NCBI GenBank assembly: GCA_019057975.1
Contig: JAHLWJ010000129.1
Location: 1-12,002, forward strand
DNA from: Promethearchaeota archaeon
Lineage (GTDB): Archaea > Asgardarchaeota > Lokiarchaeia > Sigynarchaeales > SOKP01
Length of the DNA: 12,002 bases
Direction of reading: 5' to 3'
Shown: piece by piece, positions 1,693 through 10,459 of the stretch
How the letters are laid out: every line of letters starts with the position of its first letter
Position numbering within the stretch: position 1 is the stretch's first letter
Notes under the pieces: model-generated
Databases searched by the model: none
What the model was told of the DNA's origin: nothing
What the model saw: the letters and a program-made list of their open reading frames with translations, nothing else
Program-made: the position numbers and the translations under genes

Positions 1693-1714
1693 ACACTATA
1701 CAATTGTGAAATCT

Positions 1715-2518
1715 ATGAATGAAAAAACAGAATCTAAAATAAGTTTCTCTTATTTAAGACGATTCAACTTAATAATGGGATTTTTACATTTAATCCAAGC
1801 CATTATAATGATAATCATGTCTTATACAATACCTCAAATAAGGGATTTTGAGTTACCAATTACAACCTCTTACCTTTTCTACAATGATGCTTTAATACCT
1901 CCAAGACTGGTGCCTAATTACACTCAATTAACGACGGTCCCTATTGGTCCTCTGGTTGCTATGTTTTTACTTCTCTCGGCTATCGCACATTTATTGATCG
2001 TATTACCCAAAGTCAATGATTTCTATAATAAAAAATTGGGTCAAGGAATAAACTATTTTCGATGGTTTGAATACGGGTTAAGTTCCTCCTTGATGATAGT
2101 TTTAATTGCGTGGTTTTTCGGAGTCTACGATCTTTCTACTTTAATTTTAATTTTTGCGATCAACGCCACGATGAATCTTTTAGGTTTGATGATGGAACTT
2201 CATAATCAGACAACAAAGAAAACGAAATGGACTGCCTTTTACATCGGAACTTTCGCAGGTCTTATTCCTTGGGTCATAATTCTTTTGTATCTATTTGGTA
2301 ACGGTAATATTACCGAAATTCCCTGGTTTGTATGGGCTATTTTTGGATCTTATGTATTATTCTTCAATACTTTCCCGATTAACATGATCCTTCAATATAA
2401 AAAAGTTGGGAAGTGGAAGGATTATTTGCATGGAGAACGAGGATACATACTCCTCAGTTTGTGGTCTAAGACTCTTTTAGCATGGTTAGTATTTGCGGGA
2501 GTATTACAACCAGCATAA
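1715..2518 (+). CDS. Heliorhodopsin (retinal-binding seven-helix membrane protein)
   Basis: Heliorhodopsins are inverted seven-helix photoreceptors that bind all-trans retinal; they have slow photocycles, do not pump, and sit in the membrane with the N-terminus in the cytoplasm. The family signature is clear. Numbering from ATG 1715: RRFNLIMGFLHLIQ in helix A with H25, H92 in helix B, RWFEYGLSSSLMIVLIA in helix C with the counterion E119, FAINATMNLLGLMME in helix D, FPINMILQY in helix F, and GERGYILLSLWSKTLLAWLVFAG in helix G with the retinal lysine K252. The H92-to-E119 distance of 27 equals that between H80 and E107 in the reference protein 48C12. A Trp stands two residues before the lysine where I recall a small or aliphatic residue. 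A GTG at 1706 would add three residues. The gene has its own TATA box and a T14 terminator, so it is probably a single-gene unit. No carotenoid cleavage dioxygenase is seen nearby. Confidence 0.93.
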   Translation: MNEKTESKISFSYLRRFNLIMGFLHLIQAIIMIIMSYTIPQIRDFELPITTSYLFYNDALIPPRLVPNYTQLTTVPIGPLVAMFLLLSAIAHLLIVLPKVNDFYNKKLGQGINYFRWFEYGLSSSLMIVLIAWFFGVYDLSTLILIFAINATMNLLGLMMELHNQTTKKTKWTAFYIGTFAGLIPWVIILLYLFGNGNITEIPWFVWAIFGSYVLFFNTFPINMILQYKKVGKWKDYLHGERGYILLSLWSKTLLAWLVFAGVLQPA

Positions 2519-2526
2519 TTATAAAC

Positions 2527-2540
2527 TTTTTTTTTTTTTT
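2527..2540 (+). terminator. T14 terminator after heliorhodopsin
   Basis: Fourteen consecutive T begin 9 bases after the heliorhodopsin TAA. This is a strong archaeal-type intrinsic terminator and separates heliorhodopsin transcription from the racemase gene. Confidence 0.7.
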
Positions 2541-2546
2541 ATTTAT

Positions 2547-2553
2547 TTTATAC
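2547..2553 (+). promoter_or_regulatory. Candidate TATA box for the racemase gene
   Basis: TTTATAC is centred about 34 bases before the TTG start at 2584. Together with the T14 terminator just upstream, it suggests separate transcription and a nearly leaderless mRNA, and it supports the short start over any start inside the heliorhodopsin gene. Confidence 0.4.
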
Positions 2554-2583
2554 AAAGGTATTGAATTTTTAAAGGTGTTAATT

Positions 2584-3276
2584 TTGAAGTTAATAGGCTT
2601 GATTGGAGGTATGAGTTGGGAGAACACAATAGATTATTACCGCATCATAAACGAAATAGTAAAAAAAAGATTAGGAGAGTGGTTTTCAGCAGAAATTTTA
2701 CTATATTCGGTCAACTTTGAAGAAGTTCTTCAATTTCAAAACCAAAATAATTGGAATGAACTCTTGAAATTAATGATTATAATATGTAAGAAACTTGAAT
2801 TAGCTGGAAGTAAAGCAATCGTCATCTGCTCTAACACAATGCACAAGATTGTTACTGAAATTGAAACCGAAATTTCAATTCCCCTCATTAGCATCGTAGA
2901 AGAGACCGCTAAAGCTATAAAATCTATGAATATTAATAGTGTGGGCTTATTAGGCACAAAATTTACGATGGAAGGAGCCTTTTATGCTGAAAAACTAATG
3001 AATAAGTATGAAATTAACACATTAATTCCTGATAAAATCGAAAGAAATTACATCCATAAGGCAATTTACCAAGAGTTTGCCAAAGGAAAATTCCTTGAAT
3101 CAACCAAGAAAAAGTTCTTAGAAATAATTGAAAATTTAATAACAAATGGAGCAGAAGGGATAATTCTTGGATGCACTGAACTTCCTATGTTAATTAAACC
3201 TCTAGATCTAACTGTTCCTGTTTATGATACTTTAAAAATTCATTTACGAGCAGCTGTAGATTTCTCATTAACTTAA
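2584..3276 (+). CDS. Aspartate/glutamate racemase family protein
   Basis: Members of this family racemise acidic amino acids (mainly aspartate) in the cytoplasm without a cofactor, using two opposed cysteines. With a TTG start at 2584 the protein has 230 residues and begins LKLIGLIGGMSWENT (first residue read as Met), the normal start of the family. The cysteines are C82 in ICSNTMHK and C197 in LGCTELPML, close to Cys82 and Cys194 of the Pyrococcus horikoshii enzyme, and GLLGTKFTM (121-129) is the central family motif. The frame is open upstream into the heliorhodopsin gene, but that extension would encode phenylalanine-rich sequence from the poly-T terminator and is rejected. A GTG at 2575 is an alternative. 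D-aspartate could feed cell-surface polymers or signalling; substrate choice (Asp, Glu or other) cannot be read from sequence alone. The gene converges on the fasciclin gene. Confidence 0.9.
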   Translation: MKLIGLIGGMSWENTIDYYRIINEIVKKRLGEWFSAEILLYSVNFEEVLQFQNQNNWNELLKLMIIICKKLELAGSKAIVICSNTMHKIVTEIETEISIPLISIVEETAKAIKSMNINSVGLLGTKFTMEGAFYAEKLMNKYEINTLIPDKIERNYIHKAIYQEFAKGKFLESTKKKFLEIIENLITNGAEGIILGCTELPMLIKPLDLTVPVYDTLKIHLRAAVDFSLT

Positions 3277-3330: not shown

Positions 3331-3732
3331 TTAAGAAGGTAAAATTACCTTATCAATAACATGAATGATTCCGTTATCAGTTTCTATATCTGCTTTAATA
3401 ACGGTTGCATCGTTCACTTTTACTCCATTAGTGGCATCTACGGTAATTTCCTGTCCTTGTAGAGTCTTTACTTTCATGGTACCTGAAAGATCAGTTGATT
3501 TCACTTTTCCTTCAATTCCGTGGTATAAAAGAATTCCCTTTAATTTTTCAGGGTCTTTGAGTAATGCATTTAAAGTTTCAGAAGGAATCTTAGAAAAGGC
3601 ATCATCAGTTGGAGCAAAAATAGTAAAAGGTCCTCCAGTTGATAATGTATCCACAAGACCAGCAACTTCGGCAGCTTTAAGTAAGGTAGAAAAACTGCCA
3701 GCTTCCATCGCTACTTGAACAATATTCGGCAT
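3331..3732 (-). CDS. Single-domain fasciclin (FAS1/beta-Ig-H3) protein
   Basis: FAS1 domains act in adhesion or small-molecule binding, usually outside the cell. This 133-residue protein is one complete domain. The H1 motif is at 36-46 (FTIFAPTDDAF), the YH pair at 70-71, and the H2 motif at 120-132 (NGIIHVIDKVILP). The N-terminus (MPNIVQVAMEAGSFSTLLKA) enters the domain at once, so there is no signal peptide and no anchor. Unlike most FAS1 proteins it should stay in the cytoplasm or leave by an unknown route. Signal-less single-domain FAS1 proteins do occur in prokaryotes. GAGGA (3741-3745), 8 bases before the ATG, is a good Shine-Dalgarno sequence and supports this start. The gene appears monocistronic and convergent with the racemase. 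FAS1 proteins can bind carotenoids in some animals and bacteria, which is suggestive beside heliorhodopsin but unproven here. Confidence 0.92.
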   Translation of the reverse strand: MPNIVQVAMEAGSFSTLLKAAEVAGLVDTLSTGGPFTIFAPTDDAFSKIPSETLNALLKDPEKLKGILLYHGIEGKVKSTDLSGTMKVKTLQGQEITVDATNGVKVNDATVIKADIETDNGIIHVIDKVILPS

Positions 3733-4155: not shown

Positions 4156-5427
4156 TTATGATATAATTCCAGTCTCTATAACTTCTTTAGGCATATTCTC
4201 GGTTATGGGTTTTTTTTCTCTATTGTCATAACCGAATTTTAATACCTTAAAACCAATAAGAAATGGTATAAGACTTAATAAACTTAGAACTAATGCATAT
4301 GGAATATTTACATCAAAAGAAAGTAAGATTCCACCGACTATTGGTCCCATAATTTGAGTTAGATTGTCTATTCCGGTGGTAATTCCCATTATTTTTCCTT
4401 GATTTTGACTATCTACAGATCGACTTATAAAACCAGTAATGATGCCTTGAGATAATGACCCCGCAAAACTAAGAAAACCCAACAAAATTACTAATTCCCA
4501 GGCTTGAGTTACAATTCCGAAGAACAAATATGCAATTATGTAAGTTCCTAATCCTAAAAGCGCAGTAGCGGGGTCTCCAATAAATTTTCTAATTCGATTA
4601 AAGATCAATATCCTAAAAATAATTTGATATACGCCTAATAGCGTCAATAGAATTCCTACTATAAATGGACTTAATCCAAGTCGTATACCCGCGAATATGC
4701 TAAAGGTTGTCTGCAGAATTCCTCCCGTGATTGCAATAAAACTATACTGAATGACGAGTGTTAAAGTTTTATTGTTTTTCCAAATCGAAGCAGAAGTTTT
4801 ATTATAATCAAGTCTTTCTATGACACCATCCTGCAATGTTGAATAAACTTTTTTAGGTAAACTCTCTTTTAAATAGATTGTAGTGTAAACTAGTGAGAAT
4901 CCTGTCAGAATGGAAGCAAAAAGACCAGGCCAAATTATACCGAAAGGATATAAAAAACCACCAATAGCAGGACCTATTAAAAATGCCAAACCAAATGTTA
5001 TACCAATATTAGTCATCTGTTTTGGTCGCTCCTTTGGAGGCACAACGTCACCTATTATTGCTTTTGCTATTGGGAATTGACCACTAAAAACTCCATCTAT
5101 TATTCTAGCAATAAATAAAAGTAAAATATTGTTGGAAAGTAACAAAATTATAAAACCTACAAGCGTTCCTGCTAATGAAATCAACATTATAGGTTTCCGA
5201 CCATAATTATCACTCAATTTACTGAGAATCGGTCCAAAGAAAAATCCAAAAATTGCATTTGAACTTAAAAGAAATCCAATTATTACTGGTGAACTATTGA
5301 ATTCTGCGATGAAAAAAGGCAAAAATGGTAGTATAATACTAAATCCAAGAATGTCAACAAAAACTGCAATCCAAAGAGGTGTTAGTTTTTGATAATCATT
5401 TTTTTTATTTAACATAACTAATAACAT
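4156..5427 (-). CDS. MFS transporter, DHA1/TetA-like drug:proton antiporter
   Basis: This is a 12-helix major facilitator of normal length (423 aa) in the cytoplasmic membrane, probably exporting a small hydrophobic or drug-like molecule in exchange for protons. Visible signatures are D25 in the first helix (VFVDILGFSIILPFLPF, like the TetA helix-1 Asp), motif A at 65-79 (GPILSKLSDNYGRKP), R108 of motif B in LFIARIIDG, and motif C at 146-157 (GLAFLIGPAIGG), which marks antiporters. The second half repeats the fold with GPIVGG near the end. Two starts are possible, ATG 5427 and ATG 5415 (fifth residue); both precede helix 1. The gene runs the same way as the SDR upstream but is separated by 182 bases with a T8 tract, so co-transcription is doubtful. 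The substrate cannot be predicted. Confidence 0.9.
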   Translation of the reverse strand: MLLVMLNKKNDYQKLTPLWIAVFVDILGFSIILPFLPFFIAEFNSSPVIIGFLLSSNAIFGFFFGPILSKLSDNYGRKPIMLISLAGTLVGFIILLLSNNILLLFIARIIDGVFSGQFPIAKAIIGDVVPPKERPKQMTNIGITFGLAFLIGPAIGGFLYPFGIIWPGLFASILTGFSLVYTTIYLKESLPKKVYSTLQDGVIERLDYNKTSASIWKNNKTLTLVIQYSFIAITGGILQTTFSIFAGIRLGLSPFIVGILLTLLGVYQIIFRILIFNRIRKFIGDPATALLGLGTYIIAYLFFGIVTQAWELVILLGFLSFAGSLSQGIITGFISRSVDSQNQGKIMGITTGIDNLTQIMGPIVGGILLSFDVNIPYALVLSLLSLIPFLIGFKVLKFGYDNREKKPITENMPKEVIETGIIS

Positions 5428-5609: not shown

Positions 5610-6503
5610 TTAAATAACTTTTAACTCGGGAAGAACTAATTCAGTATTTTTCATATATTCTTGACTTAATTCCCAGAGTTCTTCTTGAAGTTTTAGTTTG
5701 TATGATTCTTTTGAGGAGCGCGCAACTTTAGATTTTTTATAATACTTTCCGGTAATTTCTTTAACTTCAGTTGAACTTGCTAGATATATCGATGTTTTCG
5801 CGCCTTTCTGTGCATTTATTGTAAATAAGTTTGTCAATTTACTAAAAAGTTTTGTTAATTTATTGTTTTGATTCTTTCCAAAGTTAGTATTAACGAAACC
5901 CGGATGAAGTGCATTGACAGTAACTCCTGTGCCTTCTAACCTTCGAGACAGTTCATATGTAAACATAACATTTGCTAACTTTGAATTAGAATAAACTCGA
6001 AAACTTTTATATTCCTTCTCCATATTTGTATCTTCTAGATTCAATTTGGTAAATCTATGTGCTTCAGAAGAGACATTTATAATTCTTGAAGGAGCAGATT
6101 TCTTTAGAAGATCAATAAGCAATAATGTTAAAAGAAAATGTCCGAGATGATTGACCGCAAAAGTGGTCTCGTATCCAGTTGCTTCGATTGTTCTTTCTTT
6201 TAAAATCAATCCAGCGTTATTTATTAACACATCTAGACTATCATACATTTCCTTATATCGAGAAGCTGCTAAATAGATAGATTTAGGTTCTGATAAATCA
6301 GCAATAATTAATTCAACATTCTTAGTATTTGCTCTTTGTTTAATTTCTTCTTGTACTTTTTCTCCTTTCTCCTTATTTCGACACAACATAATGATGATAG
6401 CGCCCATTTCTGCCAACGCTACAGCCGTCTCCTTTCCAATGCCGGAATTTGCTCCCGTAATTAATACATATTTATTTTTCATATCGAATAAATTTTCGTT
6501 CAT
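5610..6503 (-). CDS. Short-chain dehydrogenase of the retinol dehydrogenase (RDH11-14) type
   Basis: This is an NAD(P)-dependent oxidoreductase with the classical SDR fold. The motifs are TGANSGIG (16-23) for the dinucleotide, R42 in LCRN after the second strand (an NADP preference, by family rule), DL at 69-70, NNAG (95-98), and the catalytic N118, S145/S146, Y171 and K175 (YSNSK). The whole layout copies vertebrate retinol dehydrogenases 11-14: NHLGHFLLTLLLIDLLKKSA, PSRIINVSSEAHR, SKLANVMFTYELSRRLEGTG, VTVNALHPGFVNTNFG, and the C-terminal GKYY...SKESY..KLQEELWELS. The 297-residue length fits. Many prokaryotic relatives act on other substrates (WWOX or protochlorophyllide-reductase-like groups also resemble it), so retinal/retinol is a hypothesis, strengthened only by the heliorhodopsin about 3 kb away. 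The gene is divergent from the Staygreen gene across 255 bases. Met8 at 6482 is an alternative start. Confidence 0.88.
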   Translation of the reverse strand: MNENLFDMKNKYVLITGANSGIGKETAVALAEMGAIIIMLCRNKEKGEKVQEEIKQRANTKNVELIIADLSEPKSIYLAASRYKEMYDSLDVLINNAGLILKERTIEATGYETTFAVNHLGHFLLTLLLIDLLKKSAPSRIINVSSEAHRFTKLNLEDTNMEKEYKSFRVYSNSKLANVMFTYELSRRLEGTGVTVNALHPGFVNTNFGKNQNNKLTKLFSKLTNLFTINAQKGAKTSIYLASSTEVKEITGKYYKKSKVARSSKESYKLKLQEELWELSQEYMKNTELVLPELKVI

Positions 6504-6758
6504 AATATATCGCTATTATTACTAAATAAAGAGTAAATCTTAAAAGAAGCTATAATAAGATATAAAAATAATATCAAAATGTTATAATTTTAATAAAAAA
6601 GGGACTTGATCTTGTTATATTTTAAAAACTCTAATTTCAATGTATATATAACCCAAAAACAACTCTAAAATTTATCCAAAAGAAGATTTTTAAACTAAAT
6701 TTTAATAATTCATAAGAAGGGGTTTTATAATTCTTGTTAGATTTGTTTATTCGTAATA
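6504..6758. other. Divergent intergenic region between the SDR and Staygreen genes
   Basis: This 255-base AT-rich region must hold the promoters of both genes. A good BRE-TATA pair for the Staygreen gene is listed separately. On the minus strand a weaker CTTTATTTAG (around 6523-6531) lies about 25 bases before the SDR ATG. A TGTATATATAA stretch near 6641-6651 is TATA-like too, and could be a further promoter or an operator. No ORF or structured RNA is apparent. Confidence 0.4.
6714..6730 (+). promoter_or_regulatory. BRE and TATA box for the Staygreen gene
   Basis: A purine-rich element (AAGAAGGGG, about 6714-6722) directly precedes TTTTATAA (6723-6730), whose centre is about 32 bases before the ATG at 6759. 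The order and spacing match a textbook archaeal promoter with a nearly leaderless transcript. It is the best promoter in the window. Confidence 0.6.
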
Positions 6759-7223
6759 ATGGCAGATTTAAATCCTGAAAAATTACATATAAAATATAAA
6801 GATTCGGTTGATAAAGTTAAACTAGAGCTACCTCGCAAATACACATTAACTCATTCTGATTCGACTGGAGACCTTTTTCTTACAATCGGGTCAGAATACG
6901 ATTATGAACAAATTTCCAGTCTTTATACGCGATTTATGAGAGATGAAGTACTAGCCGAATGGAAAAAATCGAATAATAATTACGAACTACATATCCATTT
7001 GCATGTTAGTGGGGGTTTTACTTTTGACTGGGCCGCTTTACGAGACAGGATATTTTGCTATCATTTACCACTAGTTCTTGAAGCAATTAAATTCGGAGAT
7101 AAGAATCTTATTGAAGAAATGCCAGTAATCGAAAATTCTCAGATTTTGGTACATTTTCAATCTAAGAAAGAGAGATATAATAGGATCGAGAATTATGGAC
7201 AGATTAAAGATATTTCTTGTTAA
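6759..7223 (+). CDS. Staygreen (SGR) family protein, Mg-dechelatase homologue
   Basis: In plants, SGR removes the central Mg from chlorophyll a to give pheophytin a, starting chlorophyll breakdown. Homologues from non-photosynthetic bacteria also have this activity in vitro. This 154-residue protein covers the whole Staygreen domain: LNPEKLHIKY at the N-terminus, LPRKYTLTHSDSTGDLFLTIGSEYDY (25-49), MRDEVLAEW (60-68), LHIHLHVSGG (77-86), the segment RIFCYHLPLVLEAIKFGD (97-114), and ILVHFQSK. Residues I recall as important in the bacterial enzyme are all present: H32, D34, D62 and D114. There is no transit or signal peptide, so it should be cytoplasmic. Nothing else in the window makes chlorophyll, so the real substrate may be another tetrapyrrole or scavenged chlorophyll. 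The gene has its own promoter; the methyltransferase gene follows 110 bases later on the same strand. Family assignment is firm, function less so. Confidence 0.92.
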   Translation: MADLNPEKLHIKYKDSVDKVKLELPRKYTLTHSDSTGDLFLTIGSEYDYEQISSLYTRFMRDEVLAEWKKSNNNYELHIHLHVSGGFTFDWAALRDRIFCYHLPLVLEAIKFGDKNLIEEMPVIENSQILVHFQSKKERYNRIENYGQIKDISC

Positions 7224-7333: not shown

Positions 7334-7960
7334 ATGAATGAAATAAGTAAATTAGTAGAACAGGGATATAATAAAATCGCTGAAAATTATTATAGTCATA
7401 GGGATTTAAACAAATTCAATAATGAATTAGATGAATTTGCTTCTCTACTCCCAGAAAATGCTCATGTATTAGATGTTGGATGTGGTGCGGGCATTCCTAC
7501 GGCTAAATACTTAACAGAACGAGGAATTAAAGTAACTGGGATTGATTTATCAGATACAATGTTGAATTTAGCTCGAGATCACTTGCCAAATACTAAGTTT
7601 ATTAAAATGGATATGAACGAGTTAGAGTTTAATGAAAACACTTTTGACGGGATAATAAGTGTGTTCGCTCTCTTTCATGTCCCTAAGGTCAAGCATTTAG
7701 ATATATTTAAGAAATTTTTTGAAATATTGAAACCTGGTGGCATTTTAATGATTAATACAGGCGTCTCAGAATCAGAAGGAACCAGCAGGTTTTTCGGAGT
7801 TCCTATGTTCTGGAGCAATTACAACCCAAGAACTACTCTTGATCTCGTAAAAAAAGCAGGGTTCTCAATTATATCTGAGGCTGTTTTAGAAAGAGGCGGA
7901 GAATATCAATATTGGATTTTTGGAAAAAAAATTGAGCACATTTATCAACAAATCTTTTGA
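7334..7960 (+). CDS. Class I SAM-dependent methyltransferase
   Basis: This soluble methyltransferase uses S-adenosylmethionine; the acceptor is unknown. After a helical N-terminus (YNKIAENYYSHRD, common in UbiE-like enzymes) come motif I VLDVGCGAG (45-53), the acidic residue D71 in VTGIDLS that holds the SAM ribose, DMNE around the adenine, FDGIISVFALFHVP as motif IV, and LKPGGILMINTG as motif V/VI. The C-terminal part (FFGVPMFWSNYNPRTTLDLVKKAGF, EYQYWIFGKK) is typical of the generic Methyltransf_11/25 group, often small-molecule methylases. The 208-residue length is normal and the end looks complete. The ATG at 7334 is chosen because it just precedes the conserved helix. The product could act on a quinone, lipid or pigment; the Staygreen gene upstream does not decide this. 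Confidence 0.88.
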   Translation: MNEISKLVEQGYNKIAENYYSHRDLNKFNNELDEFASLLPENAHVLDVGCGAGIPTAKYLTERGIKVTGIDLSDTMLNLARDHLPNTKFIKMDMNELEFNENTFDGIISVFALFHVPKVKHLDIFKKFFEILKPGGILMINTGVSESEGTSRFFGVPMFWSNYNPRTTLDLVKKAGFSIISEAVLERGGEYQYWIFGKKIEHIYQQIF

Positions 7961-9049: not shown

Positions 9050-9084
9050 TCTTCAAAAAACCATAATAAAATTATTTAAAATTG

Positions 9085-9131
9085 TGTTGCATATGTGTTG
9101 CATTTACCAATATAACACGAAGGTATTACAC
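9085..9131 (+). repeat. Imperfect 47-bp direct repeat, copy A
   Basis: Aligned without gaps to 11848-11894 (offset 2763), 35 of 47 bases agree. Conserved blocks are TGTTGCA, then TGT-x-GCAT, then ATAAC-x-CGAAG-x-TATTACAC. Copy A also holds TGTTGCAT twice, 11 bases apart (9085-9092, 9096-9103). It lies between the beta-helix remnant and the glycosyltransferase end. Function is unknown: recombination site, element terminus or protein-binding array are possible. Confidence 0.55.
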
Positions 9132-9171
9132 CAATTCAACTTTCATGGACAAGGTTCAATGACTTTCTTAT

Positions 9172-10179
9172 CTAAATCCTTATTCTTTCATATACCTTGA
9201 TATAATCCTCAACCATCCTATCAGCGGAAAATTTTTCTTCAACCCATTTGCGGCAATTTAGCCTACTAATATCTTTAATATCGTCCAATACATTGACAGC
9301 TTGTTCAATTGACCCTACTAAAAAGCCTGTTTTTTTATCGTTAATGACTTCGGGCATACTTCCCCTGTTAAAGGCAATGACGGGAGTACCACAAGCCATT
9401 GCTTCGACAACCGACAATCCAAATGGTTCGTTAAAGTTAATCGGATGAATTAATGCATAGGCATTTCTTAATAATTTATTCCTTTGTTTGGGGCCAACAC
9501 TTCCAATGTATTCGATGTTATTAATACTTAAATGAGGTTTGATTTCGTGTTCATAATAAGTTTCATCTTGTATAATTCCTGCCATAATTAATCGCATTCC
9601 GTATTTAAGCGATATTTCAATTGCCTCTTTAGCTCCTTTATCGTTATGAATCCTGCCAAAAAATAATAAATAATCTCCAATTTGTTCTTGAAATGTGAAC
9701 TGAGTGAGATCGATTCCATGATGTATGGTAGCAATATAGTTAAGGTCAGGGCTACGATCTGCTTCGCTAATCGATACATAATAACAATTTCTATTATACT
9801 TTATATAGACAGGTAAGATTTTTGGTGAAGAGAATCCATGAATTGTTGTTAATACTGGAGTCCTTGTCATCTTCGTGTAAGTAAGGGGAAGAAAATCAAA
9901 TTGGTTGTGAATTATATCAAATTCTTCCCCTCTTTCAAACACTTCTGAAATATGTAAACATTCCCAAACTTTTGGGAGTAATTTTTTATCTTCTTCGTAT
10001 CCTTGAGGGCATACTCCGACTAGATTTGCGTTGGTTATCGAATCTTTTGTTGCAAAAAGTGTTACTTCAATTCCTCTCTCAACAAGCCCCTCAGTCAATA
10101 ATGAAACAACTGATTCCCAAGGACCATAATGGCGTGGAGGAGTTCGCCATGCAATCGGAGAAATCATTGCTACATGCAT
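9172..10179 (-). CDS. Family 4 glycosyltransferase (GT-B fold)
   Basis: This enzyme moves a sugar from a nucleotide-sugar to an acceptor with retention, in the cytoplasm or at the inner membrane face. The 335-residue protein has both Rossmann domains. The N-terminal one starts MHVAMISPIAWRTPPRHYGPWE and holds the ERG loop, FDIIHNQFD and VLTTIHG. The C-terminal one has YLLFFGRIHNDKG (R176, K181 for the diphosphate) and the EX7E motif E251-PFGLSVV-E259, followed by ACGTPVIAFNRGSMPEVI and TGFLVG. It has no membrane segment. A GAAGGAG ribosome-binding site overlaps the stop of the GH130 remnant upstream and fixes the ATG at 10179. This GT4 type often sits beside a GH130 phosphorylase, and the pair is still here although the partner is broken. 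The gene is somewhat richer in G+C than its surroundings. Confidence 0.9.
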   Translation of the reverse strand: MHVAMISPIAWRTPPRHYGPWESVVSLLTEGLVERGIEVTLFATKDSITNANLVGVCPQGYEEDKKLLPKVWECLHISEVFERGEEFDIIHNQFDFLPLTYTKMTRTPVLTTIHGFSSPKILPVYIKYNRNCYYVSISEADRSPDLNYIATIHHGIDLTQFTFQEQIGDYLLFFGRIHNDKGAKEAIEISLKYGMRLIMAGIIQDETYYEHEIKPHLSINNIEYIGSVGPKQRNKLLRNAYALIHPINFNEPFGLSVVEAMACGTPVIAFNRGSMPEVINDKKTGFLVGSIEQAVNVLDDIKDISRLNCRKWVEEKFSADRMVEDYIKVYERIRI

Positions 10180-10186
10180 TCCTTAG

Positions 10187-10459
10187 CTACTCCTTCAAAA
10201 AAATCCGAGGATCTTCTAAACCGTGGATTTCATAATCATGTTCGGGAAAAATAATGGGTTCTTCTTTTTTTTCAATAATATTTAAAGGGCCGTCTAATTT
10301 AATATATCCAATACTTGAATAATTCCCTTGTCTTACTGCACGGTAGAACATATGAAGGGTACTACCTTCTTGGTATATCGTAGGATTTAAAACTGCTTGA
10401 TTTTCAAATTCTAAATCAGTCGCTTCAAGTAAAACACCTTCTCTTTTGATCACTACCAT
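10187..10459 (-). pseudogene. N-terminal remnant of a GH130 glycoside phosphorylase
   Basis: GH130 enzymes phosphorolyse beta-mannosides (mannosyl-glucose, manno-oligosaccharides). These 90 residues match the family N-terminus: IKREGVLLEATDLEFENQAV, LNPTIYQEGSTLHMFYRAVR with R40, YSSIGYIKLDGP and the hallmark EDPR (82-85). The match ends after DPRI; FLKE and a TAG follow. Full-length members have well over 300 residues, so about three quarters of the five-bladed propeller is gone. The last codons coincide with the ribosome-binding region of the glycosyltransferase gene 7 bases downstream, suggesting an internal deletion that joined the middle of GH130 to that leader. The remnant cannot fold into a propeller. 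It may still be translated and couple translation of the glycosyltransferase. The start ATG at 10459 looks native. Confidence 0.85.

What the first reader, a model, noticed from the sequence alone, without database searches (positions are those of the whole stretch)
6759..7223. Staygreen Mg-dechelatase homologue in a non-photosynthetic archaeon
The protein is full length and keeps H32, D34, D62 and D114, so it could still remove Mg from a chlorophyll-like pigment. An organism that makes no chlorophyll would use it on scavenged pigment, on another metallo-tetrapyrrole, or for an unknown ancestral reaction. It has the best promoter in the window, which argues for active use.
Basis: partly seen in the sequence, partly recalled or inferred. 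Interest (0 to 1): 0.7.

Follow-up and report, generated by a model that had tools for sequence, protein, structure and literature searches.

The report
Archaeal staygreen gene among light-response genes
A gene related to the plant enzyme that starts chlorophyll breakdown sits, in Asgard archaea that appear unable to make any chlorophyll-like pigment, beside genes for light sensing and repair of sun damage, which suggests that this enzyme family may first have served to cope with light.

Summary
Window 6759-7223 (+) encodes a full-length, 154-residue STAY-GREEN (SGR) protein of a Lokiarchaeia-type Asgard archaeon, 49% identical to the active, crystallised Anaerolineae enzyme and alike at all 12 positions singly mutated there. 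SGR homologues in archaea are already in print, so its existence is not new.

What appears new is the context. SGR occurs in 49 of 227 genomes of the phylum. In 15 of the 36 that also carry heliorhodopsin, the two lie within 10.4 kb (about 0.2 expected). In 11 of 22 with a photolyase N-domain match, they lie within 5.4 kb. A carbonic anhydrase control gave 0 of 26. In two genomes SGR lies in a cluster with a type-1 rhodopsin, peroxiredoxin, fasciclin, photolyase and carotenoid genes. The window has heliorhodopsin 4.2 kb upstream of SGR.

No porphobilinogen deaminase was found in any of the 49, so no known route to make tetrapyrroles: the substrate is imported or not a tetrapyrrole.

Best reading: a dechelatase of a light and photo-oxidative-stress gene set, acting on scavenged chlorophyll-type pigment. 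The light link rests on linkage within one phylum; substrate and benefit are inferred. My paper searches listed nothing linking SGR with rhodopsin.

The parts
6759..7223 (+). STAY-GREEN (SGR) protein, 154 aa, Mg-dechelatase family
   Evidence: PF12638 E 1.1e-50; PDB 7y5y E 9e-47; fold TM 0.93; 12 of 12 singly mutated positions identical
6700..6733 (+). conserved SGR promoter: TAATAATTCATAAGAA element and a TATA-like box (TTTTATAA here, TTTAAAC in most kin) about 36 nt before the ATG
   Evidence: element at score 15 or more before 18 of 35 SGR genes scanned, 15 of whose sites made the matrix; similar spacing to the ATG with different upstream genes
7334..7960 (+). class I SAM methyltransferase; directly downstream of SGR on the same strand in 18 of 41 loci
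   Evidence: PF13649 E 1.2e-22; neighbour count
5610..6503 (-). short-chain dehydrogenase, divergent neighbour; after one chain without a functional name its best PDB matches are light-dependent protochlorophyllide reductases, but it is far below that family's cut-off
   Evidence: PF00106 E 5.3e-39; PDB; LPOR model 108.8 bits against cut-off 331.35
4156..5427 (-). MFS efflux-type transporter; its sequence cluster occurs in 12 of 41 SGR loci
   Evidence: PF07690 E 4.5e-47
3331..3732 (-). fasciclin (FAS1) domain protein; cluster in 5 of 41 SGR loci
   Evidence: PF02469 E 9.4e-42
1706..2518 (+). heliorhodopsin
   Evidence: PF18761 E 9.2e-96; NCBIfam heliorhodopsin 308.5 bits, cut-off 100; PDB 6is6 E 1.9e-69
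2482..3276 (+). aspartate/glutamate racemase family protein, next to heliorhodopsin in several close kin (true start probably downstream of 2482)
   Evidence: PF01177 E 7e-41; cluster in 7 of 41 loci

Best explanation
The gene encodes a genuine SGR-type metal dechelatase that belongs to the light and photo-oxidative-stress equipment of Asgard archaea. Shown by sequence: the fold and the catalytic residues are those of the active Anaerolineae enzyme; the gene has its own conserved promoter element in close kin; and SGR lies repeatedly and non-randomly beside rhodopsins, photolyases, a UV endonuclease, peroxiredoxin and, in some genomes, carotenoid genes. Inferred: since these genomes show no gateway enzyme of tetrapyrrole synthesis, the substrate is a Mg-chlorin taken up from phototrophs or their debris. 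D34 would ligate the central Mg and D62 assist, so that two protons replace the metal and a Mg-free chlorin results. This would either start the disposal of a light-activated sensitiser or prepare a scavenged pigment for use. Which of these two is not shown.
For: Family, fold, residues. Activity of the Anaerolineae homologue and its loss in D34N and D62N: PMC8531759. Linkage: SGR-heliorhodopsin within 10.4 kb in 15 of 36 co-bearing genomes and SGR-photolyase N-domain within 5.4 kb in 11 of 22; control carbonic anhydrase 0 of 26 within that range, on one contig with SGR in 2 of 26, nearest 48 kb. Linkage at about 8 separate places on the SGR tree (11 changes) and in at least 4 clades among 34 heliorhodopsins in hand. 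Two rhodopsin types, photolyases with and without a PF03441 match, and UvdE. G068 cluster: rhodopsin, fasciclin, peroxiredoxin, SGR, photolyase, B12-binding protein, phytoene synthase and desaturase-type genes. HemC in 0 of 49 SGR genomes.
Against: I measured no activity, and whether Obata 2019 assayed an archaeal homologue could not be checked (not held). Mg-free chlorins also photosensitise (recalled), so dechelation alone would not be protective. No neighbour cluster that I annotated is a known next step of chlorophyll breakdown, though I did not search for each such enzyme; one Rieske oxygenase lies near SGR in one genome. Chlorophyll activity of bacterial homologues may be promiscuous (Obata 2019, recalled). 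By ORF clustering 24 of 41 loci show neither heliorhodopsin nor photolyase in the fetched stretch, some of them short contigs. Three of four bacterial plasmid contexts carry no obvious light gene; one (Peribacillus) has a PAS-domain protein nearby. The SGR promoter element is strong before only 2 of 32 heliorhodopsins, both sister loci. CobN/BchH shows no association with SGR.
Confidence: 0.45

Rival explanations
1. SGR acts on a non-tetrapyrrole substrate in the same light-stress gene set; its action on chlorophyll in vitro is a by-product.
For: HemC in 0 of 49 SGR genomes; CobN/BchH not associated with SGR (12 of 49 against 32 of 178); PMC8531759 states that the physiological relevance of bacterial homologues is unknown.
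Against: Residues needed for chlorophyll dechelation in the Anaerolineae enzyme are invariant (H32, D34, D62) or at least 90% conserved in my 62-sequence alignment, 52 of whose other 61 rows are 45-72% identical to the window protein; the rows were picked from the best hits of two searches, so this set is biased to close relatives. No candidate substrate is known.
Confidence: 0.3
2. The cells scavenge chlorophyll for carbon, nitrogen or phytol; light genes are near only because the same genomes live in lit habitats and carry one acquired island.
For: Co-occurrence is partly confounded: even carbonic anhydrase co-occurs with SGR (26 of 49 against 36 of 178).
Against: Physical proximity is not explained by habitat: 15 of 36 against about 0.2 expected, control 0 of 26; several different gene orders and rhodopsin clades.
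Confidence: 0.15
3. An inactive or repurposed relative, e.g. a pigment-binding protein.
For: Some bacterial relatives lack the motif: the Priestia protein lacks H32, D34 and D62; weak ADF/cofilin-like structural rows.
Against: The window protein keeps all 12 mapped residues; the cofilin rows are at the background level for this method (note).
Confidence: 0.1

Closest known systems
AbSGR-h, Anaerolineae bacterium SM23_63 (PDB 7y5y; PMC8531759)
   Same: 49% identity over the full length, same fold (TM 0.93), all 12 singly mutated positions identical; the 7y5y stretch is 100% identical to the SM23_63 protein P0121
   Different: host phylum; a thirteenth position, R115, changed only in a published triple mutant, is K here; activity of the window protein untested; genomic context of AbSGR-h not examined here
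Plant STAY-GREEN Mg-dechelatases
   Same: same family; D34 and D62 of AbSGR-h correspond to Asp107 and Asp132 of AtSGRL (PMC8531759)
   Different: plants make chlorophyll; no plant sequence was aligned here
Heliorhodopsin-photolyase gene neighbourhoods (PMC9769723, PMC8612252, PMC11109279)
   Same: heliorhodopsin beside photolyase, UvdE, carotenoid and redox genes
   Different: SGR is not among the ten neighbour groups named in PMC11109279 (passages), and 'staygreen' and 'stay-green' do not occur in the main text of PMC8612252; supplements were not seen

Membership tests
STAY-GREEN (PF12638) | profile match above the curated cut-off, full length | tested here: met
   171.7 bits against 27, positions 2-146 of 147
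STAY-GREEN (PF12638) | SGR fold of 7y5y | tested here: met
STAY-GREEN (PF12638) | catalytic D34 and D62, structural R26, Y28, T29, D114 | tested here: met
   with roles from PMC8531759
STAY-GREEN (PF12638) | Mg-dechelatase activity | not testable with these tools
   needs an assay
Chlorophyll catabolic pathway of a chlorophyll maker | host has tetrapyrrole synthesis | tested here: not met
   HemC in 0 of 49 SGR-bearing genomes; found in 12 of 227 in all and in 11 of 14 control genomes. Tested in relatives, as the window's own genome is not held
Light-response gene neighbourhood with heliorhodopsin | heliorhodopsin or photolyase within about 11 kb | tested here: met
   window heliorhodopsin 1706-2518, 4.2 kb from SGR; statistics
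Light-response gene neighbourhood with heliorhodopsin | shared control element between SGR and heliorhodopsin | tested here: inconclusive
   score 15 or more before 2 of 32 heliorhodopsins (L062, L064) against 1 of 410 other genes; score 12 or more 3 of 32 against 9 of 410; the window's heliorhodopsin scores 6.0

The most novel reading that the evidence does not exclude
STAY-GREEN is at root a light-stress enzyme of non-photosynthetic prokaryotes. Asgard archaea that cannot make tetrapyrroles take up chlorophyll from their surroundings and demetallate it as part of a light-sensing gene set, either to disarm it or to obtain a Mg-free chlorin as a red-light chromophore for a neighbouring photoreceptor or photolyase. 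Plants later recruited such an enzyme for leaf senescence.
Probability: 0.25. Interest if true: 0.85.

Novelty: new variant of a known kind. Interest (0 to 1): 0.62.

Why it matters
The physiological role of bacterial SGR homologues is stated to be unknown (PMC8531759). A repeated link to rhodopsins, photolyases, UvdE, peroxiredoxin and carotenoid genes, together with no detectable gateway enzyme of tetrapyrrole synthesis in the 49 SGR-bearing Asgard genomes, turns that question into specific tests: light induction, pigment uptake, and assay of scavenged chlorins. It would also place pigment handling and light protection in the archaeal group closest to eukaryotes.

Tried and rejected
Endogenous Mg-porphyrin or corrin substrate: not favoured, because HemC is found in 0 of 49 SGR genomes and CobN/BchH (PF02514) shows no association (12 of 49 against 32 of 178).

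A general SGR-heliorhodopsin-UvdE regulon through one operator: tested with a matrix built from 15 SGR promoter sites; at score 15 or more it is found before 2 of 32 heliorhodopsins (sister loci), 0 of 14 UvdE, 0 of 7 photolyases and 1 of 410 other genes; at 12 or more before 3, 0, 1 and 9. Rejected as a general rule.

Co-occurrence alone as proof: rejected, as the carbonic anhydrase control also co-occurs with SGR (Fisher p 1.7e-5); the weight rests on distance. This was the only neutral control family; 2 of its 62 genomes are below the family cut-off, and in 24 of 26 genomes it lies on another contig than SGR, so its distance there is not measured. In one search the blocks of consecutive handles assume taxonomic order, which was not verified. 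The binomial expectation assumes a 3.7-Mb genome and independent genomes; related genomes are not independent.

Phage records: no match.

Rows left out of counts: of 49 SGR genomes, longer loci were fetched for 38, for 7 more and for G123; G025, G071 and G215 were not fetched. The 41-locus counts are the window plus 40 loci from 38 genomes. Five of the 49 genomes (G025, G045, G071, G123, G215) have only a partial or broken SGR match, read by hand. In the first matrix the L049 site was dropped for register (16 of 17 kept); in the second the L042 and L049 sites were left out (15 kept); L051/L053 and L052/L054 share one site each.

Full report
The thing itself. Window 6759-7223 (+) is a complete 154-residue ORF that matches Pfam Staygreen over nearly the whole profile (E 1.1e-50). 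The only related chain found in the PDB is 7y5y, titled SGR of an Anaerolineae bacterium (E 9e-47); its sequence is identical to a protein of Anaerolineae bacterium SM23_63. An AlphaFold2 model (62 sequences, mean pLDDT 86.2) superposes on it with TM 0.93. Identity is 49% (75 of 154 positions). All 12 positions singly mutated in the published study are identical; a thirteenth, R115, changed only in a triple mutant, is K here. According to that study (PMC8531759; abstract, introduction, first part of the results and discussion read) D34N and D62N abolish activity while the protein stays soluble, H32A is weakly active, and R26, Y28, T29 and D114 are structural. In my 62-sequence alignment H32, D34 and D62 are invariant and D114 nearly so; in a 24-sequence set the Priestia megaterium homologue lacks H32, D34 and D62.

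Who carries it. The best hit in the large protein database is 89% identical and named Promethearchaeota; the closest named genome locus is a Lokiarchaeia MAG, 94% identical. Among the 227 genomes held of that phylum 49 have an SGR match, five of them partial or broken. Archaeal homologues are already mentioned and aligned in PMC8531759 (three archaeal sequences), so the presence of SGR in archaea is known.

Neighbourhoods. I fetched 40 SGR loci from 38 genomes and clustered all ORFs together with the window. By these clusters heliorhodopsin appears in 13 of 41 loci including the window, photolyase in 10, either in 17; peroxiredoxin in 6, fasciclin in 5, UvdE in 4. Heliorhodopsin is the immediate same-strand upstream neighbour of SGR in 5 of 41, peroxiredoxin in 3, photolyase in 1; photolyase is the immediate downstream neighbour in 3, twice on the opposite strand. 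A class I methyltransferase follows SGR on the same strand in 18 of 41, with gaps of 107-157 bp. In the window the order is heliorhodopsin, racemase, fasciclin, MFS transporter, SDR, SGR, methyltransferase; the kin locus L042 (G001) has in addition a PNPOx-type gene, a photolyase and part of a DUF1722-type gene between fasciclin and MFS.

Is it more than chance? Heliorhodopsin is found in 60 of 227 genomes, the photolyase N-domain in 48. SGR and heliorhodopsin co-occur in 36 of 49 SGR genomes against 24 of 178 others (Fisher 1.7e-15). A control, carbonic anhydrase PF00484 (62 of 227), also co-occurs (26 of 49 against 36 of 178), so co-occurrence is partly phylogeny. Distance is the better measure: SGR and heliorhodopsin lie within 10.4 kb in 15 of 36 genomes, where a random single gene would give about 0.2; SGR and the photolyase domain lie within 5.4 kb in 11 of 22; carbonic anhydrase does so in 0 of 26, sharing a contig with SGR in 2 of them, the nearest 48 kb away. 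On a 60-row SGR tree the linked state needs 11 changes among the archaeal rows and is found in about eight separate groups. On a tree of the 34 heliorhodopsins in hand the linked genes fall in at least four clades (5 changes). If only six independent linked lineages among fifteen are counted (a round guess), the binomial tail is 2e-10.

Other light genes. In G068 (L090) SGR stands in one stretch with a rhodopsin whose nearest solved relative is schizorhodopsin 4, fasciclin, peroxiredoxin (25 bp from SGR, same strand), a photolyase that converges on SGR and overlaps it by 12 bp, a PNPOx-type protein, a B12-binding protein whose best PDB matches are other cobalamin-binding proteins, CarH among the weaker ones, and phytoene synthase and desaturase-type genes. 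G070 (L067) shows the rhodopsin-fasciclin-peroxiredoxin-SGR-photolyase-PNPOx order, with further genes that cluster with the carotenoid-type genes of G068. In G123 a broken SGR piece lies 3.6 kb from a rhodopsin of the same Pfam family. Of the 13 SGR genomes without heliorhodopsin 4 have such a rhodopsin, so 40 of 49 carry some rhodopsin. G053 has, besides its intact SGR, an SGR fragment inside a carotenoid-type cluster.

Tetrapyrroles. Porphobilinogen deaminase (HemC, PF01379), which by established biochemistry the known routes to heme, chlorophyll, siroheme, F430 and cobalamin all need, was found in 12 of 227 genomes and in none of the 49 with SGR; among these, G214, G124 and G053 include single contigs of 2.6, 3.3 and 4.9 Mb. 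The same search found it in 11 of 14 control genomes, four of them archaea. Many of these genomes are fragmented assemblies and may be incomplete, and the absence is not a statistically special trait of SGR genomes (Fisher p 0.07), but it bears on function: the substrate is probably imported or is not a tetrapyrrole. Phytoene synthase was found in 4 of 11 SGR genomes tested and not in the two genomes nearest by locus, G001 and G002, so those may also depend on retinal or carotenoid from outside.

Promoter. The bacterial-type scan finds no clear excess of sites. In kin loci a TAATAATTCATAAGAA element followed by a TATA-like box lies at a near-constant place before SGR, with various upstream genes; 18 of 35 SGR genes scanned score 15 or more, most of them part of the matrix. 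The same matrix scores 15 or more before heliorhodopsin in two sister loci, L062 and L064, out of 32 heliorhodopsins, and before 1 of 410 other genes. This fits joint control in that lineage only.

Mechanism and limits. Shown: family, fold, residues, linkage, no HemC found in relatives. Inferred: dechelation of a scavenged Mg-chlorin by D34 and D62, in a light-stress setting; the benefit (disposal or use of the pigment) is open. Against it: Mg-free chlorins still sensitise (recalled); none of the neighbour clusters that I annotated is a known next step of chlorophyll breakdown, though I did not search for each such enzyme; I know of no assay of an archaeal SGR, but Obata 2019 could not be read; and three of the four bacterial plasmid contexts show no obvious light gene while one has a PAS-domain protein nearby. 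The window's own genome is not held, so genome-wide statements rest on relatives.

Prior art. A search of the held paper library for heliorhodopsin with staygreen gave none. A broader search asking for any two of heliorhodopsin, stay-green, dechelatase and schizorhodopsin gave 177 papers, of which 15 were listed; none of those 15 held a rhodopsin term together with a stay-green or dechelatase term. Staygreen with archaea gave nine papers, eight listed, none on archaeal SGR by title. A search asking for any two of Lokiarchae, heliorhodopsin, chlorophyll degradation and tetrapyrrole gave 400 papers, 15 listed, none on this by title. PMC11109279 (passages) names ten neighbour groups of heliorhodopsin, SGR not among them. 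PMC9769723 (abstract and one section) reports that a heliorhodopsin binds a class 2 photolyase and raises its activity. PMC8612252 (passages and one section) reports heliorhodopsin near photolyase, UvdE, carotenoid and redox genes. Obata et al. 2019 on bacterial SGR homologues is recalled and seen only as cited; it is not held. For PMC11006732 I saw the abstract. Supplements of these papers were not seen.

Noticed in passing
L111 4992-5444 (+), viral contig IMGVR_UViG_3300033406_000373: A phage-like contig encodes an SGR homologue (PF12638 E 4.4e-52), adjacent to a DNA methylase and close to terminase small subunit and portal genes.
   Followed up: partly
window 5610-6503 (-): The SDR divergent from SGR matches light-dependent protochlorophyllide reductases best among functionally named solved structures (E about 2e-24) but far below that family's cut-off.
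   Followed up: partly
L077 7648-8616 (+): A Rieske oxygenase with a VanA_C domain lies 2.8 kb from SGR in G057, in a locus that also has heliorhodopsin; plants use a Rieske oxygenase later in chlorophyll breakdown (recalled), so it deserves a look.
   Followed up: partly
L089 about 9066-9224: G053 holds a broken SGR piece inside a carotenoid-type gene cluster with a B12-binding regulator-like protein.
   Followed up: partly
227 genomes of the phylum: 43 of 44 genomes with a CobN/BchH-type match (42 over the cut-off) have no HemC match: an orphan chelatase subunit, use unknown.
   Followed up: no
protein P0126: A protein labelled Hodarchaeota is 82% identical to the Anaerolineae SGR and groups with it in the tree: transfer or mis-binned contig.
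   Followed up: no
L076 5989-6435 (+): The Priestia megaterium homologue lacks H32, D34 and D62 and has a very long branch: probably not a dechelatase.
   Followed up: no
window 10187-10459 (-) and 9172-10179 (-): A 90-aa ORF lies just upstream (on the - strand) of a glycosyltransferase (PF00534); I did not identify it.
   Followed up: no
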